Part shown: positions 8,296 to 63,147 of the stretch, one piece after another | How the letters are laid out: each line of letters starts with the position of its first letter | Numbering within the stretch: position 1 is the stretch's first letter | Source of the DNA: Sphaerisporangium sp. TRM90804 | Lineage (GTDB): Bacteria; Actinomycetota; Actinomycetes; Streptosporangiales; Streptosporangiaceae | Assembly (NCBI RefSeq): GCF_029846175.1 | Contig: NZ_JARWAC010000010.1 | Coordinates: forward strand, 186,001-250,000 | Reading direction: 5' to 3' | Length of the DNA: 64,000 bases | Made by a program: the position numbers and the translations under genes | Notes under the pieces: generated by a model | What the model was told of the DNA's origin: nothing | Databases searched by the model: none | The model's input: the letters and a program-made list of their open reading frames with translations, nothing else

Positions 8296-8343
8296 CTCCG
8301 GCAAATGAGGGTTACTTACCCGCATGCCTTTTCCGCCAGCGGG

Positions 8344-9194: not shown

Positions 9195-9278
9195 TACTCC
9201 AGCCGCACTTACCGATGTAGGAGTTGTTGTCGCTGGTAGTGGCTTCGCTGGGCGCGGGTCTGGTGACGGCGGCGCCAC
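9195..9278. repeat. Inverted repeat arm 2 (IS701-type 3' end)
   Basis: The 84 bp are the reverse complement of 8204-8288 with a one-base gap. They hold the transposase stop codon (TAA at 9209-9211 on the minus strand) and the flanking IS end. Confidence 0.85.
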
Positions 9279-9815: not shown

Positions 9816-9861
9816 GAAACTCGGCTCGACCTGACCGCGGCGTGAGCGGATCTGCGGCGGG

Positions 9862-10100: not shown

Positions 10101-10248
10101 CGCTGCTCCGGACCCGCGTTCGGCGAGGTTCTGCAGCAGCCGTCCGGCAGTCCGCCGCGGGCGGCGTACCACGCCCTTGATTCAAAGGGGCGGGTCGTCG
10201 TGCTCGGCGATGGCGTGTCCCACCGAGTTCCCATGCGACCTACCTCCC

Positions 10249-10842: not shown

Positions 10843-10908
10843 CGTCGGGTCCCTTCACGAGGAGTCCAAGAATCGTCGTTGACAGCGTAGCGCCTTACCC
10901 CCAGGATT

Positions 10909-11101
10909 GGACCGGGGGGGGGGGGGGGGGGGGCGGGGGGGGCCCGCGGGGCGGGGGCGGGGGGGGGGGGGGGGGGTGTGTGGGGGGGGGCGCCCCCCCC
11001 CCCCCCCCGGCCCCCCCCCCCCCCGGGCTCCCCCCGGCCCCCCCCCCCCCCCGTGGCGGCCCGGGGGCCCCCCCCCCCCTCCCCCCCCCCCCCCCCGGTC
11101 C
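10909..11101. repeat. G/C homopolymer tract with inverted ends (probable sequence artefact)
   Basis: About 186 bp are almost only runs of G followed by runs of C, with a few T and A. The outer edges form an inverted repeat, GGACC at 10909-10913 and GGTCC at 11097-11101, so the block could fold into one long hairpin. It replaces the expected tetR promoter and the N-terminus of the divergent MFS gene. Nothing in it looks coding. A collapsed or badly called hairpin in the assembly is the likeliest explanation. Confidence 0.8.
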
Positions 11102-11114
11102 GATATGAAATGGG

Positions 11115-11690
11115 GTGAGTTCTTTTATGACCGAGACCGCAGCCGGCACCCGGAGCAGCAATGCCCCTGGGGACCTTCCTGGCCATCTCCTCCTCCGGTT
11201 TCTCGCTGGGCCTGGTGTTCGGCGGGGCGCTGGCGCAACTCCACTGGCGGCCGGCCTTACTGCTGCCGGCGGCGGTCGGCGTGACCCCCTGCTGCTCGCC
11301 CTGCTCCTTGTCGGCCCCTGGCCGGTGCCACCGCCGGGCTGTTCCTGCTCGCCGCCGGCTACTAGGTCTGGGCCGTGCTGATCGGCCAAGCCGAACCGCT
11401 GACGGTCCTGCTCATCCGGCAAGTGCTGGGCGGGGTCCGGGTTCGCCGCCGCCTACTGCGCGCTCAACATCGCCGCCGTAGCGGGCGTGGGACAGGAGGA
11501 GCAGGGCCTGGCGTCGGGCCTGTTCAACGCTAGCGCTCGACTCGGTACCAGCCTGGTCACCGCCGTCACCGCCACCGTGCTCGTCGCCAGCGGCGGCGCG
11601 ATCGTGGGCGGCTACCGGGCGGGCCTGTGAACAGTCGTCGTGTCCGTGGTCATCACACTGCTGTCGGCCCTGGGCGCGAGAACTCCACAA
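11115..11690 (+). pseudogene. MFS (DHA2/EmrB-QacA type) drug efflux transporter remnant
   Basis: Recognisable pieces occur in different frames: GTFLAISSSGFSLGLVFGGA and LAQLHWRPALLLPAAVG, then a frame change, ALNIAAVAGVGQEEQGLASG, LFNASARLGTSLVTAVTATV and a stop at 11628. These are segments of a 14-helix drug:H+ antiporter, but the N-terminal helices are missing behind the homopolymer tract and at least two frameshifts and one internal stop are present. It is divergent from the tetR gene at 10249, a common repressor-efflux arrangement. Confidence 0.65.
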
Positions 11691-11707
11691 CCATGAAGGG
11701 AAATCCC

Positions 11708-12118
11708 ATGCGCATCTACACTGCCAGCGCCATCTCCGAAGGCCGCGACAGCCGGGCGGTCTCCTCGGACGGCCGGCTGGACGTCCGGCTCGCCCTGCAG
11801 AAAGAGCTGGGCGGCGACGGCGCCGGCACCAATCCCGAGCAGCTCTTCGCCGCCGGGTACGCCGCCTGCTTCGCCACGTCCATGAAACTCGTGGCGGGCC
11901 AGCAGGGCCTCGACGTGGCCGACGCCTCGGTCACCGCAGAGGTCGGCCTGTCACCCAACGGCAAGGGCGGCTACGAGCTGGATGCCGTCCTGCGCGTGAA
12001 ACTGCCCGGCACCCTCACCGCGGAGCAGGCACGAACCCTCCTGGACACCACCCACCGGGTGTGCCCCTACTCCAATGCCACCCGCGGCAACATGCCCGTC
12101 GAACTGCTCCTCGACTAA
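11708..12118 (+). CDS. ohr: Organic hydroperoxide resistance protein, Ohr/OsmC family
   Basis: The start is the ATG at 11708, seven bases after GAAGGGA. The 136-residue protein has the Ohr signature: GTNPEQLFAAGYAACFATSM with the peroxidatic Cys, and near the C-terminus VCPYSNATRGN with the second Cys. Ohr enzymes reduce organic hydroperoxides with lipoyl-linked thiols. No ohrR (MarR-type) regulator lies next to it; the nearest regulator is the TetR at 10249. It directly follows the MFS remnant and is one of the few intact genes of the island. Confidence 0.9.
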   Translation: MRIYTASAISEGRDSRAVSSDGRLDVRLALQKELGGDGAGTNPEQLFAAGYAACFATSMKLVAGQQGLDVADASVTAEVGLSPNGKGGYELDAVLRVKLPGTLTAEQARTLLDTTHRVCPYSNATRGNMPVELLLD

Positions 12119-12803
12119 CGAGTATGACGCCCGCCCCAAAGGGCTGATGCCTGACGAAAGTAAGAGTGCAACCCAGCCGATTGTCCGCTGTGTGGTGTCC
12201 CGCCTGGCTCCGTCCGTTTGGTTGGCAACGGACGGAGAGCTGGGAGGAGAAAGGACACCTGTACTGATATCACGCACATGAACGTCAGGCAGCCGAGGCC
12301 GACCAGGCGATTCACGCACCCGGCCGGTGCGCGACTCTGGCACGTCATCCGGTACATCATGGGGGCGGTCCGGTGAGTTCGGCCGCCCGGAAGGGTGCCT
12401 TCACGCCGCCGATCCCTCGCCGCCACTGCGCTGGTGCCCGGATCCCCACGCCGGCTCCGGGCCGACCCGGGGTCGAGGTCAGATGCCGCGCGTTCGGCTG
12501 GCGGTCCCAGGTGGATGCAACCGGAGACCGGCGCTGAGGGGCACTACATCGCGCGCGTGTCATGCCACTGCCCGAGACGATGGGGAGCACCGGTGACCGG
12601 TCCGCCGTCGGGTCTGAGCCGGATCCGTTGGCATGTTACGTCGAAGTCCGGCTGCCGCAGCGGTCGACGTGATCTGAGGTCACGATCTCCGGAATCTCTC
12701 GTGGAATCCACCGCCTGGGCGAACAGGGCATTCGGTGGTTAGCAGGTTCCAGGTGTGTGAGAAGTGCAGGTAGGAGAGGTGGGGCAGTTGCACGCGCCTC
12801 TCC
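12119..12803. other. Gene-free stretch inside the island
   Basis: I see no reading frame with a ribosome site, codon bias or recognisable product in these 685 bases on either strand. They end at the second attachment-site copy. Confidence 0.5.
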
Positions 12804-12842
12804 TAATGCGTAGTTCAAGGGTTCGATTCCCTTAGGCGGCTC
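12804..12842 (+). repeat. Attachment site copy 2
   Basis: A 39-bp copy of the tRNA-Thr 3' half (38 of 39 identical to 7724-7762). The 5' half of a tRNA is absent, so it is not a tRNA gene. It marks the right end of the island, and possibly the left end of a second element whose integrase remnant ends 55 bp to the right. Confidence 0.85.
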
Positions 12843-12897
12843 ATCGTTTGACCAAAGCGTTCCTTGATCATAATGGGCGCCCTTTTGATCTTACGTC

Positions 12898-13074
12898 TCA
12901 GATCCCCCAAAGAGCCCTTCCCATCTTCTGTAGGGCGTCCTGGGCCGGCGGCGACGCTACGTGACTGTAACCGCGGGTGACTCGGATGTCGGAGTGCCCG
13001 AGCATCTCCTGGACCACCGCCAAGGCGATCCCGGCCTCCAGCGCCAAGGTGGCCGCCGTTTGCCGTTTGGGCGT
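12898..13074 (-). pseudogene. Tyrosine recombinase/integrase, C-terminal fragment
   Basis: On the minus strand the last 58 codons of an integrase can be read: QTAATLALEAGIALAVVQEM, then LGHSDIRVTRGYSHVASPPA, ending MGRALWGI and TGA. The catalytic His of LGHS and the nucleophile Tyr of RGYSH are present. The upstream HxLRH box is frameshifted and the rest of the gene is missing. It ends 55 bp from attachment copy 2, a normal distance for an integrase gene beside its own att site. Confidence 0.75.
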
Positions 13075-46599: not shown

Positions 46600-47970
46600 T
46601 CAGGGCCGGGTGCGGCGGGCTCCGCCGCCGGCTCGCCGGGCGGGGAGGGGCGGCAGGCGGTCGGCGTGCAGCCAGGCGGTGAAGAGGGGGGTCAGCGGCG
46701 TGGCGGCGTGGCGGGCGGCCAGGCGGGTGAACTGGGCGGTGCTGACGGTGCCGTGCTGGTAGGTGGTGGTCCACTCGCGCAGGAGGGCGAAGAACGCGTC
46801 GTCGCCGAGGGTGCGCCGGAGGGCGTGCAGGGTCAGGGCGCCGCGCTTGTACACGCGGTCGTCGAAGAGGCGGCGGGGGCCGGGGTCGGCCAGCGGGAAG
46901 TCCTGGGGGAGCTCGGCCAGCCTGCGGTGCCAGCGGCCGGCGAGCGTGTCGGCCGTCTCGCCGCCCGAGGCCTCCGACCACAGCCACTCCGCATACGCGG
47001 CGAACCCCTCGTGCAGCCAGATCTCGCTCCAGCTCCCCAGCGTCAGGCTGTTGCCGAACCACTGGTGTGCCAGCTCGTGCGCGACCAGGCGCTCCTCGCC
47101 GCGGCGGCCGTCCACGTGGTTGCGGCCGAAGATCGACATGCCCTGCGCCTCGACCGGGATCTCCAGGTCGTCGTCGGCCACCACCGCGGTGTACGACGCG
47201 AACGGGTAGGGGCCGAAGAGCTCGGTGAACAGGGCGATCATCTGGCCTTGGCGGGCGAAGTCGGCCCGGACACGCGACGCGAGCCGGGCGGGGTGGAGCA
47301 GCCGCTGCGGCACCGGGCCGGCGACCTCCGTCACCTGGTAGCGGCCGATCTGCACACTCGCCAGGTACGTCGCCATCGGCTCGGCCTGCTCGTACACCCA
47401 GGTGGTCGTGGACGCGCCGCGGCGGCGGGCGGCCAGGCGGCCGTTGGCCGCGACCGCGTACGCCGACCCGGTGGTGACCGTCACGCGGTAGGTCGACTTG
47501 TCGCCCGGATGGTCGTTGCACGGGAACCACGACGGCGCCCCGGTCGGCTGGCTCGCGACGATCACGCCGTCGGTGAGCTGCTCCCAGCCCAGCCCGCCCC
47601 AGCGGCTCGGCACCGGGCTCGGGTTGCCGCCGTACCTGACCTCCACGACGAACAGCGTGCCCTCGTGCAGACCCCGCGCCGGGACGACGCGCAGCTTGTC
47701 ACGGCCGTGCGTGAACCGCGCGGGCACGCCGTCGACCGTCACCGCGGTGACGCGCAGGGCGTCGGCCAGGTCGAGCGTGAACGCCTCCAGGCGCGCGGTG
47801 GCGAACGCCGAGACGACGGCCGACGCGCGCAGCCGGTTGGCGCCCACCCGGTAGTCGAGCGTCAGCTCGTAGTGCTCGGCCCAGTAGCCCTCGTTGCCCC
47901 GTTCCGGAAAGTAGGGGTGGCGGGAGGTGCCGGGTGCCACGCTCACGTGCGGTCTAGCCTTCCAGATCAT
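46600..47970 (-). CDS. M1-family zinc aminopeptidase next to a Pls-like synthetase
   Basis: The 456-residue protein has the M1 zinc site HELAHQWFGNSLTLGSWSEI with HExxH near residue 297 and the third ligand Glu about 19 residues later (WLHEGFAAYAEWLW). In place of the GAMEN exopeptidase motif it has EAQGMSIFG. No signal peptide is seen. The ATG at 47970 overlaps the stop codon of the synthetase (ATGA), so translation is coupled; an earlier in-frame start at 47991 would overlap by 25 bp. Known epsilon-poly-lysine-degrading enzymes are M1-type zinc aminopeptidases, so a role in trimming or detoxifying the product of the upstream synthetase is a reasonable inference. Confidence 0.88.
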   Translation of the reverse strand: MIWKARPHVSVAPGTSRHPYFPERGNEGYWAEHYELTLDYRVGANRLRASAVVSAFATARLEAFTLDLADALRVTAVTVDGVPARFTHGRDKLRVVPARGLHEGTLFVVEVRYGGNPSPVPSRWGGLGWEQLTDGVIVASQPTGAPSWFPCNDHPGDKSTYRVTVTTGSAYAVAANGRLAARRRGASTTTWVYEQAEPMATYLASVQIGRYQVTEVAGPVPQRLLHPARLASRVRADFARQGQMIALFTELFGPYPFASYTAVVADDDLEIPVEAQGMSIFGRNHVDGRRGEERLVAHELAHQWFGNSLTLGSWSEIWLHEGFAAYAEWLWSEASGGETADTLAGRWHRRLAELPQDFPLADPGPRRLFDDRVYKRGALTLHALRRTLGDDAFFALLREWTTTYQHGTVSTAQFTRLAARHAATPLTPLFTAWLHADRLPPLPARRAGGGARRTRP

Positions 47971-50900
47971 TTCGACGAGGGCGGGGCCCACGGCCTGATC
48001 GGGTTGCCGAACCAGCGGGTGCGCTCGGGCACCGTCTCGCCGCGCATCACCAGGGACGCCGGTCCGATCGTGGTGTCCCGCCCGATCGTCGCCGCGGGAA
48101 GGACGACTCCGTGCGGCCCGAGCGTCGCCCCGTTCCGCAGGACGACCTTATCGATGCTCATCACCCGATCGTGGAACAGGTGGGTCTGCAACACGCACCC
48201 GCGGTTGACGCTGGCGCCGTCGCCCACCTCGACGAGGTCGGCCTCGGGCAGCCAGTAGGTGTCGCACCAGACCCCGCGGCCGATGCGCGCGCCCAGCGAC
48301 CGCAGCCACAGGTTGAGCGGGGCGGTGCCGAGCCATCCCTCGGCGAACCACGGCGCGGCGAGCACCTCGACGAAGTTGTCGGCCAGCTCGTTGCGCCACA
48401 CGAACGAGCTCCACAGGGGACGACTGCCCGCGGTGATCCTGCCGACGAGCGCCCACTTGGCCGCGGTGGCGACCGCGGCGGCCACCGCCCCGGCGCCCGC
48501 GAGCACGAACCCCACCAGCAGCGCGGCGACGGCGAAGCCGTAGGAGCCCGCGAGGAACTCCAGCGTCGCGGCGACCAGCACGGCGAGCGCCACCGTGGAC
48601 ATCGCCGGGATGACGCGGCAGATCTCCACGACGGCCCGCGCCGCCTTGAGCCGGCGCGGCGGGTCGTAGGTGCGGCTCCGGTCGCCGGCCTCGGCCGTCC
48701 TGCGCAGCTCGACGGGGGGCATGCCGAGGTAGGAAGACCCCGCCTTGGCCTTCTTCGGCGCGGCCGACAGCACGCCGACCAGGCCGTCCTTGGGCACCTT
48801 GCGGCCGGGCGCCGTCATCCCGGAGTTACCGAGGAAGGCGCGCTTGCCGATGCGCACCTGGTCGACCCGCAGGCTGCCGTTGACCAGCTCGTACGGGGCG
48901 ACCATCGTGTCGTCGGCCAGGAAGGCCCCGTCGCCCACGGTGGTCATCGTGGGCAGGGCCAGCACCGTGGACAGCTCGACGTCGCGGCCGACCTTCATGC
49001 CGAGGGCGCGCAGCCACGCGGGGGTGAGGATGCTGGCGTACAGGGGGAACAGCCAGACGCGGGCCGCCGCCATCAGGCGGCCGGTGGCCCAGGCCTGCCA
49101 CGCCTGGCGGCTGTGCACCGGGTGGCGTCCCGGGCGCAGGCCCAGGCCGAGCAGCCGCACGCACACCACGACGATCAGCGCGAAGGCGGCCAGCGAGGTC
49201 ACCGTGGCGGGCGCGACGCCGTAGAGCGCGGCGGGCAGCGCCTCCGCGAGGGTGGCCGCGCCGCGCAGGAAGGTGCTGAGCACGACGAGGCCGCACAGCG
49301 CGGCCACGATCGGCACCAGGCTGAAGAACATCGCCGACAGCCCGTACATCGCCTCCCAGCGGCGCGACCGCGGCGGCCGTTCGGACGGCGGGAACCGCCG
49401 CGCCTTGCCCTGCCGGGTCGCGGGCGCGCCCGCCCAGCGCTCGCCCGAGGGGACGGAGCCCTCGACCACGGTGCCCGGGGCCACCTGGGCGTTCTTGCCG
49501 ATGCGCGTGCCGGGGAGCAGGGTGGCGCGGGCGCCGACCGTGGCGGCGGCGCCGACGCGGATCTCGCCGACGCGCAGCAGGTCGCCGTCGAGCCAGTACC
49601 CGTGCAGGTCGACCTCGGGCTCGATCGCGGCGTTCTTCCCCAGCCTGAGCATGCCGGTGACCGGGGGCAGCGTGTGCAGGTCGGTGTCCTCGCCGACCTG
49701 CGCCCCGAGCAACCGGGCGTAGCGGGTGATCCACGGGGCGCCCGACAGCTGCCCCACCCCGATCTGGAGGGCGAACTGCTCGGCGAACCACAGCCGCAGG
49801 TGCGTGCCGCCGCCGCGAGGGTAGACGCCGGGCCGCAGCCCGCGCAGCAGCAGCCGGGCGACCGCGGCGGCGGCGCCGATGCGGCTCCAGGGCGCGATGA
49901 ACAGCAGCCAGCCGGCCAGCACCCACCACCACGAGACGGCCGGAGCCCAGGGAAGCGACACGACGTTGTTCAGCGTGGCCAGGCCGACGATCCACCGCAT
50001 GCCGCCGACGGTGAGCAGCGGCACCATCAGCGCCGCCTGCGTCAGCGCGGCACGGCGCGGCACCGGCGTCACGGCGCGCTCGGCGGCCGTCACCTCGGGG
50101 ACGGCCAGCGCGGTCAGGCGTGCCGCCAGGCCGCCCAGCGTCGGATACTCGTAGACGTCGCCCACCGCGACCGCCGGGTAGCGCGTGCGCAGCGCCGACA
50201 CCAGCAGGGCGGCGCCCAGGCTCGTGCCGCCCAGGGCGAAGAAGTCGGCGTCGGGGTCGGCGGTGTCCACGCCGAGGATTTCGGCCCATCGCTCCGCCAC
50301 CCACCGCTCGGCGTCCGACAGCCCGGCGGACGCGCCGGGCGCGCCCGAGGACGCGCCGCCGGGCAGGGGCCACGGCAGGGCGTTGCGGTCGATCTTGCCG
50401 GACGTGCGTGTCGGCAGGTGCTCGACGAGCGCGATGCGCGGCACCAGCGCGGCCGGCAGCGCCTCGGCGAGGCGTTCGCGCGCGGCCTCGGGGTCGAAGC
50501 CCTCGCCGGGGACGACGTAGCCGACCAGCAGCTGGTGCCCGGAGGCGGTCGCGCGGACCGCGGCCGCCGCGCCGAGCACGCCGTCGAGGGCCTGCATCGC
50601 GGCGTCGACCTCTCCCAGCTCGATGCGGCGACCACCCAGCTTGACCTGCTCGTCCGCCCGCCCGACGAAGACCAGGCCCTGCCGCTCGGCCTTGACCAGG
50701 TCGCCGCTGCGGTAGGCGCGCTCCCAGCCGAGGGAGGGCAGCGGGGCGTACTTCTCGGCGTCCTTGGCCGCGTCGAGGTAGCGCGCCAGGCCGGCGCCGC
50801 CGATGACGAGCTGGCCGGTCTCGCCCATGGCGACCGGCTCGCCCGCGTCGTCCACCACCGCGAGGTCCCAGCCGGCGAGCGGCAGGCCGATGCGCACCCG

Positions 50901-51992
50901 CCCCTGGCCGGTCAGCGGGGCGGCGCAGGCGACGACGGTGGCCTCGGTCGGGCCGTAGGTGTTCCACACCTCACGCCCGGGCACGGCCAGCCGTTCGGCC
51001 AGCTCGGGCGGGCACGCCTCGCCGCCGAAGATCAGCAGGCGGACGTCGTCCAGGGTCTCGACCGGCCACAGCGACGCCAGGGTGGGCACCGTCGACACGA
51101 TCGTGATGGCCTTGTCGGCCAGCCAGGGGCCGAGGTCCATGCCGGTGCGCACGAGCGCGCGCGGAGCCGGGACCAGGCACGCGCCGTGCCGCCACGCCAG
51201 CCACATCTCCTCGCACGAGGCGTCGAACGCCACCGACAGGCCGGCCAGGACGCGGTCGCCGGGGCCGATCGGCTCGTCGGCGAGGAAGAGCCGGGCCTCG
51301 GCGTCGACGAACGCGGCGGCGGCGCGATGCGTCACCGCCACGCCCTTGGGCTTGCCCGTGGACCCCGACGTGAAGATGATCCAGGCGTCGTCCCCCACCC
51401 CGGGCCGCCCGTCCCGTTCCGCGTCGCCCTCCTGCCCGGCGCCGGCGCCGCGCGGGGTGATCGTGCGGCCCTCGCCGACGACCGCGCGGACGGCGGCCTC
51501 GGCGAAGACCAGCTCGGCCCGTTCGTCGGGATCGTCGGCGTCGACCGGGACGTACGCCGCGCCGGCCGTCAGAACGGCCAGGATCGCGACGTAGAGGTCG
51601 GCGGTGCCGGACGGAACGCGGACGCCCACGCGGGCGCCGGCGCGCACGCCCGCCGCCCGCAGCTCCCGGGCCAGGCTCTCCACCTCTTCGCCCAAGCCCT
51701 GGTAGTCCAGGCGGGTCACCCCGTCGTCGAGCGCGAGGTCGTGGGGGTGGCGGCGGGTGGTCTCGGCGAGGATGTCGACCAGCGTGCGGGCCGGCGCGGC
51801 GGCCGGCCCGGCCAGGAAGACGGCCGGCTCCGTCGCGGAGGCGTCGGAGCCGGTGGCGCGGCGGGGGTCGGCCGGGCGGGGGCCGGAGGCGCCCGGGTGA
51901 CGGTGGTCGCCGGCGGGTTCGGGTCGCGCGCCGGTGAGCGCGCCGTTCGGCGAAGGGTGGCTCTGCTCGGTCTCCACCGGTGATGGGCGCAA
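47967..51992 (-). CDS. Pls/PosA-type membrane NRPS (homopolymeric amino acid synthetase candidate)
   Basis: The 1341-residue protein starts with TTG behind AGGAG. The adenylation domain (about 70-550) has FTSGSTGKPKGVAVTH, AFDASCEEMWLAW, NTYGPTEATV, YRSGDLVK and PTRTSGKIDRNALP. The carrier domain (about 555-630) has FFALGGTSLG. The C-terminal 700 residues alternate six hydrophobic helices with three left-handed-helix-like tandem segments (ATVGARATLLPGTRIGKNAQ, and WAGAPA). There is no thioesterase or second module. This is the architecture of epsilon-poly-lysine synthetase and its Pls/PosA relatives, in which the tandem C-terminal domains link one amino acid into chains at the membrane. A manual alignment gives a specificity code of about D-A-E-S-L-F-T-V-V-K; Glu at position 239 suits a basic residue. 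It is translationally coupled to an M1 peptidase. Confidence 0.9.
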   Translation of the reverse strand: MRPSPVETEQSHPSPNGALTGARPEPAGDHRHPGASGPRPADPRRATGSDASATEPAVFLAGPAAAPARTLVDILAETTRRHPHDLALDDGVTRLDYQGLGEEVESLARELRAAGVRAGARVGVRVPSGTADLYVAILAVLTAGAAYVPVDADDPDERAELVFAEAAVRAVVGEGRTITPRGAGAGQEGDAERDGRPGVGDDAWIIFTSGSTGKPKGVAVTHRAAAAFVDAEARLFLADEPIGPGDRVLAGLSVAFDASCEEMWLAWRHGACLVPAPRALVRTGMDLGPWLADKAITIVSTVPTLASLWPVETLDDVRLLIFGGEACPPELAERLAVPGREVWNTYGPTEATVVACAAPLTGQGRVRIGLPLAGWDLAVVDDAGEPVAMGETGQLVIGGAGLARYLDAAKDAEKYAPLPSLGWERAYRSGDLVKAERQGLVFVGRADEQVKLGGRRIELGEVDAAMQALDGVLGAAAAVRATASGHQLLVGYVVPGEGFDPEAARERLAEALPAALVPRIALVEHLPTRTSGKIDRNALPWPLPGGASSGAPGASAGLSDAERWVAERWAEILGVDTADPDADFFALGGTSLGAALLVSALRTRYPAVAVGDVYEYPTLGGLAARLTALAVPEVTAAERAVTPVPRRAALTQAALMVPLLTVGGMRWIVGLATLNNVVSLPWAPAVSWWWVLAGWLLFIAPWSRIGAAAAVARLLLRGLRPGVYPRGGGTHLRLWFAEQFALQIGVGQLSGAPWITRYARLLGAQVGEDTDLHTLPPVTGMLRLGKNAAIEPEVDLHGYWLDGDLLRVGEIRVGAAATVGARATLLPGTRIGKNAQVAPGTVVEGSVPSGERWAGAPATRQGKARRFPPSERPPRSRRWEAMYGLSAMFFSLVPIVAALCGLVVLSTFLRGAATLAEALPAALYGVAPATVTSLAAFALIVVVCVRLLGLGLRPGRHPVHSRQAWQAWATGRLMAAARVWLFPLYASILTPAWLRALGMKVGRDVELSTVLALPTMTTVGDGAFLADDTMVAPYELVNGSLRVDQVRIGKRAFLGNSGMTAPGRKVPKDGLVGVLSAAPKKAKAGSSYLGMPPVELRRTAEAGDRSRTYDPPRRLKAARAVVEICRVIPAMSTVALAVLVAATLEFLAGSYGFAVAALLVGFVLAGAGAVAAAVATAAKWALVGRITAGSRPLWSSFVWRNELADNFVEVLAAPWFAEGWLGTAPLNLWLRSLGARIGRGVWCDTYWLPEADLVEVGDGASVNRGCVLQTHLFHDRVMSIDKVVLRNGATLGPHGVVLPAATIGRDTTIGPASLVMRGETVPERTRWFGNPIRPWAPPSSK

Positions 51993-54798: not shown

Positions 54799-56151
54799 AT
54801 GAAACACAGGGATGTGGAACTGCTCGCGATCGGTGCCGGGCCTGCGAACCTGGCGCTGGCCGTGGCCCTCGAAGAGCTGGCGCCCGCGGGCCTGGCGGCC
54901 GGATCGCTGGTGATCGAACAGGCCGACACCGTGGCCTGGCAGCCGGGGATGCTGCTGCCGGAGGCACAGAGCCAGGTCTCCTTCCTCAAGGACCTCGTCA
55001 CCCTGCGCAACCCACGCAGCCGGTTCTCCTTCGTGAACTACCTGCACTCGGTCGGCCGGCTCAGCGAGTTCATCAACATGGGCAGCCTCTGGCCGTACCG
55101 CATCGAGATCTCCGACTACTTCAAGTGGGTCGCGGACTCCCTGACCAGGGTGCGCCTGGAGTACGCCCGCCGCTGCACGGCGATCGAGCCGCTGCGGGAC
55201 GCCGACGGAACGCTCACCGGCTGGCTCACCCGCCTGGCGGACGGCTCGACGATCGGCAGCCGCCACCTCGTCATGGGCATCGGCAGGGATGCCTACGTCC
55301 CCGAGGAGTTCGCGAACCTGCCGGCACGGCGGGTCATCCACAGCACGAAGTACATCCAGCGCATCGCCGAGCTGCCCAAGGCGGTGCCCTACCGGGTGGT
55401 GGTGGTCGGCGGCGCGCAGAGCGCGGCCGAGATGTTCGACGCCGTCCAGAGCGACCTGCCGGGCTGCCAGCCGACCATGGTGATGCGGTCGATCGGCCTG
55501 AAGACGTACGAGAACAGCAAGTTCACCAACGAGCTGTACTTCCCGAAGGCGGTGGACGGCTTCTTCGACGCACGGCCCGAGGCGCGCGAGCAGATCCTCA
55601 AGGAGATGCACATCACCAACTACTCCGGCCTCAACCCGGCGACGCTGGAGAAGCTGTACAACTCGCTGTACCTCGACCGGCTGACCGGCAAGGGACGGCT
55701 GCGCGTGGTCACGATGCACGACGTGACCTCGGCGCGCGAGGACAGCGACGAGGTCGTCCTGGAGCTGACCGACCGCAGGACGGGCGAGGTCGAGGAGCTG
55801 CGCTGTGACCTGGTGCTGCTCGGCACGGGCTTCGTGCGCGCCATGCCGGCCCTGGTGCGCGGCATGGCCGACGCGCTCGGCCTGGAGCGCGTCACGGTGA
55901 ACCGCACCTACAAGCTCGACATCCCCGGCCCCGCCACCGCGGGCTGCTACCTGCAGGGCCTGAACGAGGCGACGCACGGCATCGCCGACTCGCTGCTGAG
56001 CATGCAGGCCGTGCGCGCCTGGGAGATCACCAACGACGTCCTGGCCGCCCGCGCGGCCGGCAGGCCCGAGGCGTCCGGCGAGGGCGTGCCGGTCGAGCCG
56101 GCCGACGACGCGCCGGTGCCGGCCGTCCCCGTCCCCGTCTCCGCCAACTGA
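54799..56151 (+). CDS. Amino-acid N-hydroxylase (L-lysine/L-ornithine N-monooxygenase family)
   Basis: The 450-residue flavoprotein has the FAD loop GAGPANLALAV (residues 12-22), SFLKDLVTLRNPRSRFSFVN, the NADPH loop VVVGGAQSAAEM and the C-terminal THGIADSLLS motif of the IucD/SidA/PvdA family. These enzymes hydroxylate the side-chain amine of lysine or ornithine with NADPH and O2. Next to a cupin and a MetRS-like gene, it corresponds to the Spb38-type lysine 6-monooxygenase of hydrazine pathways; lysine against ornithine cannot be decided by eye. The last 22 residues are a Pro/Val/Ala tail. It is first in a four-gene operon; the cupin follows by 18 bp. Confidence 0.9.
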   Translation: MKHRDVELLAIGAGPANLALAVALEELAPAGLAAGSLVIEQADTVAWQPGMLLPEAQSQVSFLKDLVTLRNPRSRFSFVNYLHSVGRLSEFINMGSLWPYRIEISDYFKWVADSLTRVRLEYARRCTAIEPLRDADGTLTGWLTRLADGSTIGSRHLVMGIGRDAYVPEEFANLPARRVIHSTKYIQRIAELPKAVPYRVVVVGGAQSAAEMFDAVQSDLPGCQPTMVMRSIGLKTYENSKFTNELYFPKAVDGFFDARPEAREQILKEMHITNYSGLNPATLEKLYNSLYLDRLTGKGRLRVVTMHDVTSAREDSDEVVLELTDRRTGEVEELRCDLVLLGTGFVRAMPALVRGMADALGLERVTVNRTYKLDIPGPATAGCYLQGLNEATHGIADSLLSMQAVRAWEITNDVLAARAAGRPEASGEGVPVEPADDAPVPAVPVPVSAN

Positions 56152-56169
56152 GAGCGCGAAGGAGCCATC

Positions 56170-56553
56170 GTGGAAGTTCGCCGACTGGACCGGGACCTGC
56201 TGGGTCCCGCCAACAACCACTCCCAGCGGCTCGTGCCGTGGGCCGCGCTCAACGCCCCCTTCGAGGGCGCCTGGTGCGTCGTCAAGGCGGGCACGGCGAC
56301 CACCGCGCACGCCCACCACGAGTACGAGATCTTCATCGCGGTCTCCGGCGAGGCCGTCCTGTCGTCCAAGGGCGAGCGCACCCCGTTCAGGCCCGGCGAC
56401 ATCGTCCACTTCCCGCCGCACGTCGACCACCAGGTCGTCAACGACGGTGACGAGGACTTCCAGATGTACGCCGTGTGGTGGGACGTCCCCATGAGCGAGA
56501 ACTTCGTCGCCCGCGACCGCGACCCGAGCCTCGACCCGCGGAACGGAGGCTGA
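56170..56553 (+). CDS. Small metal-binding cupin, separate from its usual MetRS-like partner
   Basis: A GTG start behind GAAGGAG. The 127-residue single cupin shows the metal motif H47-x-H49...E53 (TAHAHHEYEIF), GDIVHFPPHVDH with H87 (and H84) as the fourth ligand. In Spb40-type enzymes a cupin and a MetRS-like domain lie in one polypeptide; the MetRS-like part makes an aminoacyl ester of the N-hydroxy-amino acid and the cupin rearranges it to form the N-N bond. Here the cupin is a free protein, encoded 4 bp before the MetRS-like gene, so the two products probably form a complex. Confidence 0.87.
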   Translation: MEVRRLDRDLLGPANNHSQRLVPWAALNAPFEGAWCVVKAGTATTAHAHHEYEIFIAVSGEAVLSSKGERTPFRPGDIVHFPPHVDHQVVNDGDEDFQMYAVWWDVPMSENFVARDRDPSLDPRNGG

Positions 56554-56557
56554 CCCC

Positions 56558-58183
56558 GTGAACGAGCGCGACGCCGCCCGCCGGGCCATCATCATCGACA
56601 CCCCGCCGACCTCCAACGGCGACCTGCACGTGGGGCACCTGGCGGGCCCGTTCATGGCCGCCGACGTGTACGCACGCTACCTGCGCTCGAACGGGCGCCC
56701 CGTGGTGTTCTCCAGCGGCACCGACGACAGCCAGACGTACGTGCTGGCCAGCGCCCGGCGCAAGGGGCTCACGCCGGAGGAGCTGAGCGGCCGGTCCTGG
56801 CACGAGATCCGGAGCACGCTCGCCGGCATGGGCGTCTCGCTCGACGGGTTCGCGCCGTACGACGACCGCTACCGGGCGTCGGTGCTGAAGTTCTGGACCA
56901 GGCTGCACCTCGCCGGCAGGTTCCGGGAGAAGACGGTCAGGCTGCCGTACTCCGAGCGCACGGGCGAGTACCTCGTCGAGGGCCTGGTCTGCGGCTACTG
57001 CCCGATCTGCATGGTGGAGAGCCGGGGCGGGCTGTGCGAGACCTGCGGCCACCAGAACAACTTCGACGAGCTGGTCGACCCGCGCTCCACCGTCGACCCC
57101 GATGACGTGGTGACGCACCGCGAGGCCCGCATCCTGGTGCTGCCGATGGAGGAGTACCGCGAGCGGCTCACCGCCTACTACCGCGAGCGCGAGCCGCGGC
57201 TGCGGCCGCACACCATGCAGCTCGTGCGCGAGGTGCTGGCCCGGCCGCTGCCCGACTTCCCGATCACCTACCCCATCGGCTGGGGCATCCCCGCGCCGTT
57301 CCCCGAGACCCCGGGCCAGCGGATCAACGCCTGGGCCGAGGGCATGCCCGCCGTCATGTACACCACCGCGTACGCCGCCGAGCGCCTCGGCGAGCGGCAC
57401 GCGGACGACGACGAGCTGTGGCGCGCCGAGCACGACCCGGAGATCGTCTACTTCATCGGCTTCGACAACGTCTACTTCTGGGGATTCACCCACATCGCGG
57501 CGCTGATGGCGCACGAGGGCAGGTACGCGCTGCCGGAGACCTTCATCTCCAACGAGTTCTACGAGCTGGAGAACGCCAAGTTCTCCACCAGCCTCGGCCA
57601 CGTGCTCTACACCAAGGACCTGCTGCGGGAGGTGCCGAGGGACCTGGTGCGGTTCTACCTCGCGATCAGCTGCCCCGAGCACCAGCAGACCAACTTCAGC
57701 CGCGACGCGCTGAACAAGGTGGCCGGCGACCGCCTGGTGCGGCCGTGGAACCGGCTGGCCGGGCTGCTGGGCAAGGCCGTCGCCGACGCGGGCGCCGAGG
57801 ACACGTCGCTGCCGGTGTCCGACGAGGGACGCCGGCGCGCCGAGGCCGTGCTGGCCCGGTTCCGCGCCTGCTACGAGCTGTCCGGCTACAGCCTCACCCG
57901 CGCCGCCAACCTGATCGTCGGCCAGCTCGACCGCATGGTCCGCGAGGCGCGGCTCGTCCACGAGGGCGCGGGCGGCGACCGTGCCAGGCTCGGCGACCTC
58001 TTCCTCGACGTGCGCGTCCTGATGGCCTGCGCGTCGCCGATCCTCATCGACCTGGCGCGGGCCGCGGGCGAGGCGGGCGGGTTCGCGAGCCGCCTGGACG
58101 CCGGCGAGTTCCGTCCCGCGCGGATCGCACCCTTCGCCCTGCCACTGCTGGACACCCCCGGCGACGCGGCGGACGCGCGCTGA
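56558..58183 (+). CDS. Methionyl-tRNA-synthetase-like amino acid-activating enzyme of a hydrazine cluster
   Basis: A GTG start four bases after the cupin. The 541-residue class I synthetase relative has a HIGH-like motif HVGH (24-27), a zinc knuckle with Cys145, Cys148, Cys160 and Cys163 (CGYCPICMVES), and KFSTS (341-345) in place of KMSKS. The C-terminal alpha-helix bundle is kept but no C-terminal EMAP/tRNA-binding domain follows. A second tRNA synthetase inside a biosynthetic operon is not for translation. In Spb40/Tri28-type systems such a domain adenylates an amino acid and esterifies the N-hydroxyl group of the partner substrate; glycine is used in the s56-p1 pathway. The amino acid used here is unknown. 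Confidence 0.88.
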   Translation: MNERDAARRAIIIDTPPTSNGDLHVGHLAGPFMAADVYARYLRSNGRPVVFSSGTDDSQTYVLASARRKGLTPEELSGRSWHEIRSTLAGMGVSLDGFAPYDDRYRASVLKFWTRLHLAGRFREKTVRLPYSERTGEYLVEGLVCGYCPICMVESRGGLCETCGHQNNFDELVDPRSTVDPDDVVTHREARILVLPMEEYRERLTAYYREREPRLRPHTMQLVREVLARPLPDFPITYPIGWGIPAPFPETPGQRINAWAEGMPAVMYTTAYAAERLGERHADDDELWRAEHDPEIVYFIGFDNVYFWGFTHIAALMAHEGRYALPETFISNEFYELENAKFSTSLGHVLYTKDLLREVPRDLVRFYLAISCPEHQQTNFSRDALNKVAGDRLVRPWNRLAGLLGKAVADAGAEDTSLPVSDEGRRRAEAVLARFRACYELSGYSLTRAANLIVGQLDRMVREARLVHEGAGGDRARLGDLFLDVRVLMACASPILIDLARAAGEAGGFASRLDAGEFRPARIAPFALPLLDTPGDAADAR

Positions 58184-58207: not shown

Positions 58208-59200
58208 GTGAAGACATTGCTATCGATGATCACGCAGACGCCCGCGTCCCACATCGCGATGGACGCGGCGGACACCGCCGCGGTCCGCAGGGCGGTGCTC
58301 GCGGTGCGCACGTCCGGCGACCAGATCGTCAACGACCCCGCGACGGTGGCCGCGGCCCGGAACGCCTCTGACACGCTGCCCCTCGCGCTGCGCCGGGCGC
58401 TGCGCGAGTTCCGCAGGCACTCGGGCCCCACGGGCTCGCTGCTGCTGCGCGGCATGCCCGTCGAGGAGGACCTGCTGCCCGCGACCCCCTCCGTGGACGG
58501 CTCCGTTCAGCACTCGCTGACCGGCCCCGCCGCGGTGCTCATGCTCGTCGCGAGCGCGTTGGGCGACCCGATCGCGTTCCGCGCCGAGAAGTCGGGCGCG
58601 CTGGTGCAGGACGTCGTCCCCGTGCCCGGCAAGGAGGAGTTCCAGGGCAACGCCGGGTCGGTCATGCTGTCGTTCCACAACGAGAACGCCTTCCACGAGC
58701 ACCGGCCCGACTACGTCATGCTGCTGTGCCTGCGGCCCGACCACGAGCGGGTCGCGGGACTGCGCACGGCGTGCTCGCGCGAGGTGCTCCCCCTGCTGAC
58801 GGTCGAGACGCGGCGGACGCTGTTCCTGCCCGAGTTCGTCACCGAGGCCCCTCCCTCGTTCGGCGCGAACGGCGACGCCACCACCCCGCACGGCGTGCTG
58901 TCCGGCGCCCCCGAGGACCCCGACATGCGGGTCGACCTCGCCGCCACGACGCCGCTGACGCAGCGGGCCAAGCTGGCGCTGGCCGAGCTGGGCGAGGTGT
59001 TCGACCGGACCGCGCGCAGCGCGCGGCTGGTCACCGGGGACCTCGCCATCGTGGACAACCGTGTCACCGTGCACGGGCGCACCGCCTTCCGGCCGCGCTA
59101 CGACGGCCAGGACCGCTGGCTCCAGCGCACCTTCGTCGCCGTCAACCTGCGCCGGTCGCGCGACCACCGTCCCGCCGACGGTCACGTCCTGTCGCGCTAG
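58208..59200 (+). CDS. Clavaminate-synthase-like Fe(II)/2-oxoglutarate dioxygenase
   Basis: The 330-residue protein has iron ligands H157-x-E159 (LSFHNENAFHEHRPDY) and H289 (VTVHGRTAF), plus Arg307 for 2-oxoglutarate (RWLQRTFVAV). HxE instead of HxD is typical of the clavaminate synthase/VioC/AsnO group, which hydroxylate or desaturate basic or amide amino acids, mostly at C3. It is the fourth gene of the operon, 24 bp after the MetRS-like gene, and probably acts on the amino acid precursor or on the hydrazine product. The GTG at 58208 is taken as start; ATG 58226 is a possible alternative. Confidence 0.88.
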   Translation: MKTLLSMITQTPASHIAMDAADTAAVRRAVLAVRTSGDQIVNDPATVAAARNASDTLPLALRRALREFRRHSGPTGSLLLRGMPVEEDLLPATPSVDGSVQHSLTGPAAVLMLVASALGDPIAFRAEKSGALVQDVVPVPGKEEFQGNAGSVMLSFHNENAFHEHRPDYVMLLCLRPDHERVAGLRTACSREVLPLLTVETRRTLFLPEFVTEAPPSFGANGDATTPHGVLSGAPEDPDMRVDLAATTPLTQRAKLALAELGEVFDRTARSARLVTGDLAIVDNRVTVHGRTAFRPRYDGQDRWLQRTFVAVNLRRSRDHRPADGHVLSR

Positions 59201-59207
59201 CCGCCGC

Positions 59208-59264
59208 CGTCCCGGGCGCCGCCCGGGACGGTCCGGCAGGGCCGGTCTCCCGAGGAGACCGGCC
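59208..59264. terminator. Two adjacent hairpins between convergent genes
   Basis: CGTCCCGGGC-GCC-GCCCGGGACG (59208-59230) and GGCCGGTCTCC-CGA-GGAGACCGGCC (59240-59264) both have perfect stems of 10 and 11 bp. They sit exactly between the plus-strand dioxygenase and the minus-strand FAD protein and can terminate either direction. Confidence 0.8.
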
Positions 59265-61228
59265 TACGCCGCGCGTTCACCGGCCGCGTACTCGCGTTCA
59301 CCGGCCGCGTACCCGCGTGCGGGGGCGCGTTCGTAGTCGGGCACCAGGCGCGGCACGCTTCGCTGCGCGTCGAGCAGGCTGAGCACGTCCCTGGCCAGCC
59401 GGTCGTTCTGCCGGAACGACACCGCGTTGCTGCGGGGCCGGGCGAACGTCGCGAACTGCCGGACGTTGGTGAAGGGGCCGAGCGCGAAACGGCGAGGATG
59501 CGGGGTCCCGTTCCGGGACACGACGCGGAAGTCCTCGGGGGAGACGTTCAGCAGCCCGGTGCGGTGCACGAACCCGTCCTCGTCGACCAGGACGTGCTCG
59601 GACGCGTCACCGCGGCGGTACAACGACCGCAGCAGGGGCTCGGTGCAGGTGTGCAGGTTGGCGTCGGGCAGCCGTGCCTCGATCATGGCGGTCGCCTCGA
59701 CGACGTGCGGCGTGCTCGTGCCGCCCGCTCGGTACACCCCCTTCTCCTCGTCGATGCCGACCCACATGTCGGCGCCGACGAACCGGATGACGCCGGCCTC
59801 CGCGAGCGCGAGGAGCTGCCGGGTGCGCTCGCCGGGCGAGCCGCTGCCGTAGTACTCGAAGAAGCCCTGCCACCAGCCGTTGAGGTCCGCGACACGGGAT
59901 CGGGCGGGCAGTTTCGCGACGGACCTCAGCAGCGGCATCTGCCCGTACACCGAGAGCAGGGCGAGGAACGCCCCGAGGTCGGCGCTGTACCGGCTGTCCG
60001 AGCGCCGGTCGATGTCCGCCCTGACGTGGTCGCGCACCTTCTCCTGCAGCTGTTCGGGGTCGTCGAAGTCGAGCCCGCGCAGCGGTTTGTCGAGCGCGGC
60101 GAGGTCCAGGCGGTCCTCCTCGGCCGGGACGGACGCCTCGATCAGCTCGCGCATCGGCTCACCGCCCCAGTCGAGCCCGGCGTAGGCGGCGTCGAACCGT
60201 TCCCAGGGGATCGCGACACGGTCCGGATGGGCCGTGAAGAGCTCGTGGTAGTAGCCGTAGGCGATCTCCTTGGCCATCAGCGGCCACAGGTCGGGCCAGA
60301 ACTCGATGCGTTCACGGTCGGCGAACCGTTCGTCCACGTCGGACGCCGTGAAGAAGCGCGGCAGCGGCGTGGGATCGCCCGCGAGCCGGTAGGAGATCTT
60401 CGAGCGGTACGGCACCCCGCGTCGCGAGCCGACGTGCAGCCGGGGTTCCTGGCCCGAGGGGACGTAACGCAGGCGGCCGTCGTCGCGTTCGAGGTAGCGG
60501 CCGCCGCGACCCTCGGTCAGCAGCACCATCAGGTCGATGAACGCGGCGCCCATGCCGCGCATGATCACGTCCTCGCCGGGTCTGAACCTCGACAGGTCGG
60601 TGTCGGCGGAGTACTCGCACGGCAGGTAACGCAGGTCGTGACGGTCGGCGAAGTCGGCGAGCAGCCGGTGGTCCTTGCCGGGGACGGCGTCCAGGTGGCC
60701 CATGGCGAGGATCACCGCGTCCGCCCGCAGCGGCTCGTCGCGCCCCTCCAGCCACACCCGCTGGCGGGTGCGGGTGCCCCCTTCGATCTGGGTGGCACGG
60801 GTGGTGTGCACGCGCACGGAGACGTTCGGCGGGCGCTCGGCGACGATCTTGTCGAAGACCCAGCGCAGATAGCGGCTCTGCACCTGGCGGGTGGCGAACG
60901 TCGTGCACCCGACATCGGCGCACGCGCCGTCGGCGGCGGCCCACTCGCTCAGGGACGGCCCCGGCCGGATCGGCCCCTCGAAGGTGACCGTCTCGTCGGG
61001 GAACATGGTGACGTTCTCGGCGGTGGCGTTCATCCACATCAACGGCGACTGCCGCTCGCGCCACACCCGCCCGGCGCCCGGTGGGTGGGGGTCGACGAGC
61101 TCGATGGACAGCGGCCGGGACGGCGGCGTCTCGGCGGCGTTGGCCAGCAGGCGCTCCAGCACCCCCGTCCCCCGGGGGCCCGCACCCACGATGACGACGA
61201 CAAGCGGATCGTTCTGCGTGTCTCTCAT
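59264..61228 (-). CDS. Large FAD/NAD(P)-binding protein
   Basis: The 654-residue protein begins with a dinucleotide fold VVVIVGAGPRGTGVLERLLA and continues with PSRPLSIELVDPHPPGAGRV and SPLMWMNATAENVTMFPDET, the pattern of the FAD-NAD(P)-binding family (NAD_binding_9) common in actinobacterial clusters. A central segment IMRGMGAAFIDLMVLLTEGR is a second motif of the family. It could oxidise the hydrazine or carry out oxidative release. The C-terminus holds a near-duplicate RGYAAGEREYAAGERAA from a 21-bp DNA repeat. ATG 61228 lies behind AAAGGGATG. It has its own promoter, divergent from the next region. Confidence 0.82.
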   Translation of the reverse strand: MRDTQNDPLVVVIVGAGPRGTGVLERLLANAAETPPSRPLSIELVDPHPPGAGRVWRERQSPLMWMNATAENVTMFPDETVTFEGPIRPGPSLSEWAAADGACADVGCTTFATRQVQSRYLRWVFDKIVAERPPNVSVRVHTTRATQIEGGTRTRQRVWLEGRDEPLRADAVILAMGHLDAVPGKDHRLLADFADRHDLRYLPCEYSADTDLSRFRPGEDVIMRGMGAAFIDLMVLLTEGRGGRYLERDDGRLRYVPSGQEPRLHVGSRRGVPYRSKISYRLAGDPTPLPRFFTASDVDERFADRERIEFWPDLWPLMAKEIAYGYYHELFTAHPDRVAIPWERFDAAYAGLDWGGEPMRELIEASVPAEEDRLDLAALDKPLRGLDFDDPEQLQEKVRDHVRADIDRRSDSRYSADLGAFLALLSVYGQMPLLRSVAKLPARSRVADLNGWWQGFFEYYGSGSPGERTRQLLALAEAGVIRFVGADMWVGIDEEKGVYRAGGTSTPHVVEATAMIEARLPDANLHTCTEPLLRSLYRRGDASEHVLVDEDGFVHRTGLLNVSPEDFRVVSRNGTPHPRRFALGPFTNVRQFATFARPRSNAVSFRQNDRLARDVLSLLDAQRSVPRLVPDYERAPARGYAAGEREYAAGERAA

Positions 61229-61555: not shown

Positions 61556-62608
61556 TCAGCCGGTGAGCAACAGCCGGACGCGGACCGCCGCGGCGAGCGC
61601 GTCGGGGTGGCCGGTGCGGGTGAAGACCTCGGCCGCGGTGTCGGTGAACTTGATGACGTGCTCGTCGCCGTGGGCGATCGCCGCCTCCATCACGTCGTTC
61701 AGGGCGTCGGGCCCGGCCGGAGCGACCGGCAGGGCCTCGCGCGGCGCGCCCAGCACCGGTTCGAACGCGGCCTGGACCCCGGCGCAGGCGGCCCAGATGG
61801 CCGACAGGCTGGGCACCCACAGCTCGCGGGGCAGGGCGGGCAGCGTGTGCAGCACGGCGTTCGGCGCGGTCGCGGTGTGCACGAGGATCACCGGGCTCGC
61901 GTGCCCGTGGGTGAGATACCGCAGCGTGGCGGCGTCCACCAGGGCTTCCAGCCGCGCCGGGACGTCGTCGGCGGTGAGCGCGGGCCGCAGCGCGGCGACC
62001 GACCCCGTCCAGCCGGGCAGGCCGGGAAGCTGGCCGAGGCGCACCCTGACCGGCCCGTCCTGGGAGGGGACCCGCGGGACGCGCTCCATGGCCTCGCCGG
62101 GGTCGAGGTCGCCCCCCGGCTCGGCGGTCACCGGCATGCCGAGCGAGCGCGCCCCCCAGAAGGCCAGGCCCTGCGCCAGCTCGGCCGCGGCGGTCGCGTT
62201 GTGCTCGTCGGCCAGCAGGGTGCGGACGGCGTGGCTGACCCTGATGACGGCGTGGGTGACGCCCGCCAGGATGCCGGGGAGCAGCCGGGGCCACCAGACC
62301 GCCAGCACCTCGCGCCACGGCCGCTCGGCGACCTGGCGGGTGAAGTACTCGGCCCAGTCGCCCACGCGGTCGCCGTCGCCGAGCGCCTCGCGCCAGTTGG
62401 TCTCGTCGATCGGCCGACGGGCGGACGGCAGGTCGTCCAGGCGGCGGGCGTAGGCGTCGACCCAGCGGTGCACGTCGTCCTCGTGGCCGCGCCTGACCAG
62501 CACCTCGACGGCCATCGGCCCGTGGTTGGTGAGCTTGCTCTCCCCCCATTCAGGGCCGGTGCCCTGGAAGCGCTCGTAGGCCTCGTTCAGGATTCCGCTG
62601 CTCATCAT
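61556..62608 (-). CDS. Questin-oxidase-like (DUF4243) protein
   Basis: The ATG at 62608 follows GGGGAGACG; the next codon is a second ATG. The 350-residue helical protein matches the questin-oxidase-like family: NEAYERFQGTGPEWGESKLT, NHGPMAVEVLVRRGHEDDVH, WVDAYARRLDD, and a late THGHASPVILVHTATAPNAV with conserved His. The fungal questin oxidase performs a Baeyer-Villiger-type ring opening without a recognised flavin; bacterial relatives are mostly uncharacterised but sit in biosynthetic clusters. In this hydrazine cluster it could oxidise an intermediate. Confidence 0.8.
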   Translation of the reverse strand: MMSSGILNEAYERFQGTGPEWGESKLTNHGPMAVEVLVRRGHEDDVHRWVDAYARRLDDLPSARRPIDETNWREALGDGDRVGDWAEYFTRQVAERPWREVLAVWWPRLLPGILAGVTHAVIRVSHAVRTLLADEHNATAAAELAQGLAFWGARSLGMPVTAEPGGDLDPGEAMERVPRVPSQDGPVRVRLGQLPGLPGWTGSVAALRPALTADDVPARLEALVDAATLRYLTHGHASPVILVHTATAPNAVLHTLPALPRELWVPSLSAIWAACAGVQAAFEPVLGAPREALPVAPAGPDALNDVMEAAIAHGDEHVIKFTDTAAEVFTRTGHPDALAAAVRVRLLLTG

Positions 62609-62811
62609 CGTCTCCCCAGGGATGGTGCGGGGCCGCCACCGGGAGTGCGCCGCTCGGCCCCGGTTCGCTGGAAAGCCTAACCCCGGCCGCATTGGCGCGG
62701 CCCCACTCACACGCATGTTCCCGAGGCCCGCCGCGGCCACCACCGCACAATCGAAGAAGACACCCGCGACCGGAGCGTATTGACTGGGCGTAGGGCAGAG
62801 GAGATGGTTTG
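62609..62811. other. Divergent promoter region
   Basis: About 200 bp between the divergent questin-oxidase-like gene and the candidate short gene/ATP-grasp transcript. TTGACT at 62780-62785 could be a -35 box for the rightward transcript; no strong -10 is seen. Confidence 0.35.
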
Positions 62812-63147
62812 ATGCTCGACAGCGTGACCGATGGCATCGAATTTCGCGAGGCCCGTTCGGTGGCGCCATTCGTCGAGGCCGGCCACGCCATTGGCGCGTT
62901 CATTTCCGTGTGGCGGGGGCCCGCGAACCACGGACCTCGTATCGCGGCGTGCGCGCCCGCCTTTCCGTTTCCGGTTCTGGTCCCGGTCGCGTCCGGGGAA
63001 TTCTCCTGCCGGAGCACCGGTGCGTTACGCCGGCCGTCGCACACGACCGGCGGGATCGGCGTGGGACGATCACCGGCACATTCCCTCTCCCTGAGCACCA
63101 TCCACCACCGGCTGACACCTGTTCAGGGAATCGGACATCATGACTGA
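62812..63147 (+). CDS. Candidate short gene before the ATP-grasp gene
   Basis: ATG 62812 follows AGGAG at 8-bp spacing. The 111-residue frame (MLDSVTDGIEFREARSVAPF, then VEAGHAIGAFISVWRG) ends at 63147, overlapping the ATP-grasp start by 8 bp. Third-position GC is lower than in neighbouring genes and there is no match to a known family; the second half looks like random GC-rich sequence. It may be a real small gene, a leader peptide or chance. Translational coupling to the ATP-grasp gene is conceivable. Confidence 0.3.
   Translation: MLDSVTDGIEFREARSVAPFVEAGHAIGAFISVWRGPANHGPRIAACAPAFPFPVLVPVASGEFSCRSTGALRRPSHTTGGIGVGRSPAHSLSLSTIHHRLTPVQGIGHHD

What the first reader, a model, noticed from the sequence alone, without database searches (positions are those of the whole stretch)
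54799..58183. Hydrazine (N-N bond) forming cassette with cupin and MetRS-like enzyme as separate genes
The order N-hydroxylase / cupin / MetRS-like, with gaps of 18 and 4 bp, reproduces the functional set known from s56-p1 (Spb38 and the fused Spb40), where an N-hydroxy-amino acid is aminoacylated by the MetRS-like part and rearranged by the cupin to a hydrazine. All key motifs are visible: FAD and NADPH loops of the hydroxylase, cupin ligands H47/H49/E53/H87, and HVGH, Cys4 zinc and KFSTS in the MetRS-like protein. The family and reaction are established knowledge; that this cluster does it is inference. The split of the two catalytic domains is the unusual part: it would allow complex formation and mixing of partners, and shows which residues belong to which half.
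Basis: partly seen in the sequence, partly recalled or inferred. Interest (0 to 1): 0.85.

Follow-up and report, generated by a model that had tools for sequence, protein, structure and literature searches.

The report
Split hydrazine-forming enzyme gene cassette
Three neighbouring genes in a soil actinobacterium almost certainly encode the known three-protein machine that joins two nitrogen atoms of amino acids into a hydrazine; having its two catalytic halves on separate genes is already described, but the surrounding gene cluster, shared by eight genomes, matches no characterised one that I found and may make an unknown nitrogen-rich compound.

Summary
An N-hydroxylase (54799-56151), a cupin (56170-56553) and a MetRS-like protein (56558-58183) form a tight operon with all the named motifs. 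[quoted passage not shown] the cupin has PyrN's four metal residues at the same spacing; the protein groups with other cupin-linked MetRS-like proteins, not with housekeeping MetRS; the siderophore hydroxylase lies on another contig.

The claimed novelty fails. Stand-alone cupin and MetRS-like pairs were reported and assayed in 2021 (PMC8664883), and albofungin carries one. In my survey 8 loci are split and 7 fused, and this genome holds a second split cassette.

The less expected part is the cluster. Eight genomes share trio + AsnO-like oxygenase + an L-aspartate-N-hydroxylase-like flavoenzyme + ATP-grasp. A DAO-type oxidase, which releases the hydrazino acid in known pathways, is near the trio in the 23 other loci examined but in none of these eight; the flavoenzyme shows the opposite pattern, and its aspartate-binding residues are not conserved. 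Product and second substrate are unknown.

The parts
54799..56151 (+). Flavin-dependent Lys/Orn-type side-chain amine N-hydroxylase
   Evidence: PF13434 289 bits; closest solved structures PvdA, MbtG, KtzI
56170..56553 (+). Stand-alone metal-binding cupin (N-N-forming half), ligands H47/H49/E53/H87
   Evidence: PF07883; invariant ligands; closest solved cupins 4RD7, 4MV2, then RHS1 5UQP
56558..58183 (+). Stand-alone MetRS-like ester-forming half (HVGH, Cys4, KFSTS)
   Evidence: PF09334; best solved match PyrN C-terminal domain 9L8V; tree
58208..59200 (+). AsnO-like Fe(II)/2-oxoglutarate oxygenase, predicted L-asparagine 3-hydroxylase
   Evidence: 59% identity to AsnO 2OG5, iron and asparagine contacts kept
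59264..61228 (-). FAD/NADPH enzyme of the L-aspartate N-hydroxylase fold, substrate probably not aspartate
   Evidence: 40% identity to 8CP2; cofactor residues kept, aspartate-binding cluster not
61556..62869 (-). Questin-oxidase-like protein, in 6 of 8 window-type loci
   Evidence: PF14027
63140..64000 (+). ATP-grasp ligase, runs past the window end (L009:140-1498); FemAB-like, MFS and DsbA-like genes follow at L009:1495-5271
   Evidence: PF13535, closest solved L-amino acid ligase BL00235

Best explanation
A two-protein (split) hydrazine synthetase with its dedicated N-hydroxylase, heading a conserved, uncharacterised biosynthetic gene cluster. (1) The flavin hydroxylase N-hydroxylates the side-chain amine of a diamino acid, probably L-lysine, possibly ornithine. 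(2) The MetRS-like protein adenylates a second amino acid with ATP, without tRNA, and passes it to the hydroxylamine oxygen, giving an unstable O-aminoacyl hydroxylamine. (3) The metal-bound cupin rearranges this ester, with E53 as the key residue, to the N-N-linked hydrazine. (4) The AsnO-like oxygenase, the flavoenzyme, the ATP-grasp ligase and others elaborate it into an unknown product. Steps 1-3 are inferred from family, motifs and tree position and are shown experimentally only for relatives; step 4 is inference. The second amino acid is unknown: the pocket position that is Arg in PyrN (a glutamate enzyme) is Trp308 here, which argues against glutamate.
For: Operon and domains. Best solved match of the MetRS-like protein is the PyrN C-terminal domain with a glutamyl-adenylate analogue, by sequence and by fold, Z 35.7 against 30.4 for the next entry. 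Cupin H47/H49/E53/H87 match PyrN H50/H52/E56/H90 in kind and spacing, and PyrN E56A is inactive (PMC8664883). Tree: 100/100 clade of cupin-linked MetRS-like proteins, apart from the housekeeping MetRS of contig C13. Methionine pocket remodelled: Y15 to T18, Y260 to V266, H301 to W308. Trio order conserved. Siderophore-type hydroxylase is elsewhere.
Against: No biochemical test of this set. Neither substrate is fixed by sequence. No DAO-type releasing oxidase in this cluster, so the downstream route must differ from s56-p1 or triacsin. Identity to the characterised PyrN domain is only 25% over the structural alignment.
Confidence: 0.9

Rival explanations
1. The N-hydroxylase serves a hydroxamate siderophore, and the cupin and MetRS-like genes beside it do something unrelated.
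For: The hydroxylase family includes PvdA and MbtG, its closest solved relatives.
Against: The trio order is conserved in all relatives examined. The genome's siderophore-type hydroxylase lies on C9 with formyltransferase-like and Fe-type ABC transporter genes. No siderophore synthesis genes were seen among the cluster genes identified.
Confidence: 0.03
2. The MetRS-like protein and cupin stop at the ester or amide stage and make an N-acyl or O-acyl hydroxylamine (hydroxamate-like dipeptide), not a hydrazine.
For: In PyrN the MetRS-like part alone gives the ester, which falls to the N-acyl amide (PMC8664883).
Against: The cupin's catalytic Glu and metal residues are intact and invariant; dN/dS shows constraint on the cupin.
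Confidence: 0.05
3. A resistance or second housekeeping MetRS next to unrelated genes.
For: PF09334 match and MetRS family models hit far below their cut-offs.
Against: NCBIfam MetRS cut-offs are missed by a wide margin; Met pocket changed; tree and fold place it with PyrN-type proteins.
Confidence: 0.02

Closest known systems
PyrN (pyrazomycin hydrazine synthetase; MetRS-like part 9L8V)
   Same: Cupin metal residues at the same spacing; MetRS-like part is the closest solved structure; same proposed chemistry (PMC8664883)
   Different: PyrN is one fused protein and uses Glu; here two proteins, and W308 stands where PyrN has Arg
RHS1 and its stand-alone MetRS-like partner, Rhodococcus jostii RHA1 (5UQP)
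   Same: Naturally separate cupin and MetRS-like proteins, N-N formation assayed (PMC8664883)
   Different: RHS1 has Asp63 where the window cupin has His47; the partner uses Glu; only 46 bits to the window cupin
Spb38/Spb40/Spb39 (s56-p1) and Tri26/Tri28/Tri27 (triacsin)
   Same: N-hydroxylase plus cupin/MetRS-like chemistry (PMC11705231, PMC10445470)
   Different: Fused synthetases; a DAO-type oxidase (Spb39) releases hydrazinoacetic acid, and no DAO is in the window cluster
Albofungin Afn8/Afn9/Afn18
   Same: Separate MetRS-like, cupin and Lys N6-hydroxylase genes (PMC11705231)
   Different: Role proposed in the review, not reconstituted there; aromatic polyketide context
Solved cupins 4RD7 and plu4264 (4MV2/4Q29)
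   Same: Closest solved cupins by sequence, 141 and 103 bits
   Different: No function in the molecule names returned here
Streptomyces sp. V2 L-aspartate N-hydroxylase (8CP2; PMC10404684), for the neighbour 59264-61228
   Same: 40% identity, cofactor residues kept
   Different: Aspartate-binding Arg/Asn cluster not kept
AsnO (2OG5), for the neighbour 58208-59200
   Same: 59% identity, iron and asparagine contacts kept
   Different: Sits here with a hydrazine cassette rather than in the AsnO context

Membership tests
Cupin/MetRS-like hydrazine synthetase | Cupin with HxHxxxE...H metal set and the invariant catalytic Glu | tested here: met
   H47/H49/E53/H87 invariant in 16 sequences; mutants of PyrN and RHS1 in PMC8664883
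Cupin/MetRS-like hydrazine synthetase | MetRS-like part with HIGH/KMSKS motifs, closer to hydrazine synthetases than to housekeeping MetRS | tested here: met
   9L8V (PyrN) is the top match by sequence and fold
Cupin/MetRS-like hydrazine synthetase | Co-located side-chain amine N-hydroxylase | tested here: met
   54799-56151, PF13434; kept in relatives
Cupin/MetRS-like hydrazine synthetase | Forms an N-N bond between an N-hydroxy amino acid and an amino acid | not testable with these tools
   Needs an in vitro assay
Hydrazinoacetate-releasing pathways (s56-p1/triacsin type) | In-cluster DAO-type oxidase | tested here: not met
   No hit of a DAO profile at E <= 1e-4 in the window, L009 or L010, nor in L013-L019
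Hydroxamate siderophore system | N-hydroxylase together with siderophore synthesis genes | tested here: not met
   Such genes are on C9; none among the cluster genes identified
L-aspartate N-hydroxylase, for 59264-61228 | Fold and FAD/NADPH-site residues | tested here: met
   40% identity; R13, W51, N62 and R593 equivalents kept in all eight
L-aspartate N-hydroxylase, for 59264-61228 | Aspartate-binding cluster (R276, N413, R416 and neighbours) | tested here: not met
   R266 is Lys in all eight, R276 is Ala/Thr/Pro, N413 is Gly in seven, R416 varies; the alignment of this helical part is less certain
AsnO-type asparagine hydroxylase, for 58208-59200 | Iron ligands H155/E157/H287 and contacts E125/N146/D241 | tested here: met
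   All kept; residue roles are from my own knowledge of AsnO, not from a paper read here

The most novel reading that the evidence does not exclude
The window-type cluster is a new branch of hydrazine biosynthesis. The split synthetase uses a different amino acid (for example asparagine or the 3-hydroxyasparagine made by the AsnO-like enzyme), and the hydrazine is processed not by the usual DAO-type C-N cleavage but by an aspartate-N-hydroxylase-like flavoenzyme redirected to the hydrazine (N-oxygenation to an azo, hydrazone or azoxy product), giving an unknown class of natural product.
Probability: 0.3. Interest if true: 0.7.

Novelty: new member of a known kind. Interest (0 to 1): 0.42.

Why it matters
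The cassette adds a well-conserved split hydrazine synthetase whose halves can be made and mixed separately. Its cluster, found in genomes of three actinobacterial families, pairs N-N formation with an asparagine-hydroxylase-like enzyme and with a flavoenzyme that appears to stand in for the usual releasing oxidase. If confirmed, it would open an unexplored route to N-N-containing natural products and supply tractable enzymes for N-N biocatalysis.

Tried and rejected
Split as novelty: rejected on literature (PMC8664883, PMC11705231) and on counts; of 16 cupin hits in a 395-genome class survey, 8 are split, 7 fused and 1 undetermined. Housekeeping or resistance MetRS: rejected. Siderophore role: rejected. 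Negamycin-type cluster: negamycin uses a KinJ-type heme enzyme, NegJ (PMC12154649). Nitrite release by an adjacent nitrosuccinate-type lyase: the genome's PF00206 matches are all on other contigs. Single-sequence AlphaFold of 59264-61228 failed (pLDDT 34) and was not used. A paper search for hydroxyasparagine with hydrazine found nothing relevant. The Fisher test used a rough count of related loci and is not relied on. The Matsuda pocket-residue study is known to me only through the review PMC11705231; plu4264's paper is not in the library.

Full report
What is there. The window is contig C3:186001-250000 of an 8.3-Mb genome. A genome of the same genus, G456, matches on a contig of the same length (121,964 bases) as the Sphaerisporangium melleum contig behind L014, so the genus is inferred to be Sphaerisporangium. 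They are followed by an oxygenase (58208-59200), a flavoenzyme on the other strand (59264-61228), a questin-oxidase-like gene, an ATP-grasp ligase crossing the window end, a FemAB-like protein and an MFS transporter.

Family and mechanism. The cupin carries H47/H49/E53/H87, invariant in the 16 sequences aligned. PyrN has H50/H52/E56/H90 at the same spacing, and PyrN E56A and RHS1 E69A are inactive (PMC8664883). The MetRS-like protein keeps HIGH- and KMSKS-type motifs and four cysteines. Its best sequence match among solved structures is 9L8V. A 14-sequence AlphaFold model (mean pLDDT 82) also matches 9L8V best, Z 35.7 over 512 residues, against 30.4 for the best true MetRS; the entry title names it as the PyrN C-terminal domain with a glutamyl-adenylate analogue. 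In a maximum-likelihood tree the protein sits in a 100/100 clade of cupin-linked MetRS-like proteins apart from the housekeeping MetRS; the deep placement of long branches is unsure. The chemistry (tRNA-free adenylation, unstable O-ester, cupin rearrangement) is established for relatives (PMC8664883, PMC11705231) and inferred here.

Substrates. Position 308, His in E. coli MetRS and Arg in PyrN, is Trp here, and Tyr15 of MetRS is Thr18 (the E. coli pocket numbering is from my own knowledge). This argues against methionine and, by comparison with PyrN, against glutamate; the true amino acid is open. Zhao et al. reported Gly, Ser, Ala, Tyr and Glu among family members. Lysine as the N-hydroxylated partner is likely by precedent only.

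Is the split unusual? No. PMC8664883 states that the three genes are widespread and that cupin and MetRS-like proteins sometimes stand alone; it assayed stand-alone RHS1 and tested stand-alone pairs. Afn8 and Afn9 are separate as well. My survey of 395 class-level genomes gave 16 cupin hits: 8 split, 7 fused, 1 undetermined. The same genome has a second, divergent split cassette on C45 with its own N-hydroxylase, DAO and ATP-grasp genes. Split trios also sit on plasmids of Pantoea ananatis and Deinococcus ficus.

What is less expected. Eight loci (the window and L013-L019: Planobispora, two further Sphaerisporangium, Microbispora, Amycolatopsis, Actinokineospora, Dactylosporangium) share a six-gene core of N-hydroxylase, cupin, MetRS-like, AsnO-like, flavoenzyme and ATP-grasp genes. 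The AsnO-like protein is 59% identical to AsnO and keeps its iron and asparagine contacts. It also occurs near the trio in Streptomyces sp. BHT-5-2 (L029) and G163 (L076), so in all ten loci whose MetRS-like pocket reads T15/V266, and in none of 15 other loci of the wider clade; these ten form one clade (99/99), so this is not independent repetition. The flavoenzyme is 40% identical to a structurally characterised L-aspartate N-hydroxylase. It keeps the cofactor residues but not the arginine/asparagine cluster that binds aspartate, so its substrate is probably not aspartate. A profile of DAO-family oxidases finds one near the trio in 23 of 23 other loci (21 at 80 bits or more, two weaker at 54 and 43 bits) and in none of the eight; the flavoenzyme shows the reverse. 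Again the eight are one clade. For relatives only about 10 kb of flank was seen; for the window itself the absence covers the whole window and 37 kb downstream. That the flavoenzyme takes over hydrazine processing is a hypothesis.

Verdict. Observation confirmed. The hydrazine-synthetase reading is strongly supported (0.9). The novelty claimed, separate catalytic domains, is already known. The remaining interest is the uncharacterised cluster type. I found no characterised cluster with this gene set in the papers searched, which is not proof that none exists.

Noticed in passing
L012 (G000:C45:54000-73000), 8731-13003 minus strand: A second, divergent split cassette in the same genome: N-hydroxylase, cupin, DAO oxidase, MetRS-like, with ATP-grasp and a 43%-identical AsnO-like gene nearby.
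   Followed up: partly
L011 (G000:C16:120000-139000), 8854-10404 minus strand: A lone MetRS-like protein with HVGH and KFSTS; no hit of the cupin profile on that contig. Function unknown.
   Followed up: no
L073 (G401:C103), 1907-3226 and 4752-6095: Two N-hydroxylase genes upstream of one cupin/MetRS-like pair in a relative of the same family.
   Followed up: no
L094 (G000:C8:68000-86000), 8034-9257 minus strand: A shortened paralogue of the 59264-61228 flavoenzyme that matches only its central part.
   Followed up: no
L030 (Pantoea ananatis plasmid pOC5aB), 8356-15033: A complete split trio with DAO, MFS and ATP-grasp genes on a plasmid typed as conjugative, from onion.
   Followed up: partly
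window 47967-51992 minus strand: Adenylation-carrier-hexapeptide NRPS-like protein; a 72% homologue lies near the trio in Streptosporangium subroseum (L025:1431-5369).
   Followed up: no
L009 4582-5271 minus strand: Rv2466c-like (mycothiol-dependent nitroreductase family) protein kept beside the cluster in 7 of 8 window-type loci.
   Followed up: no
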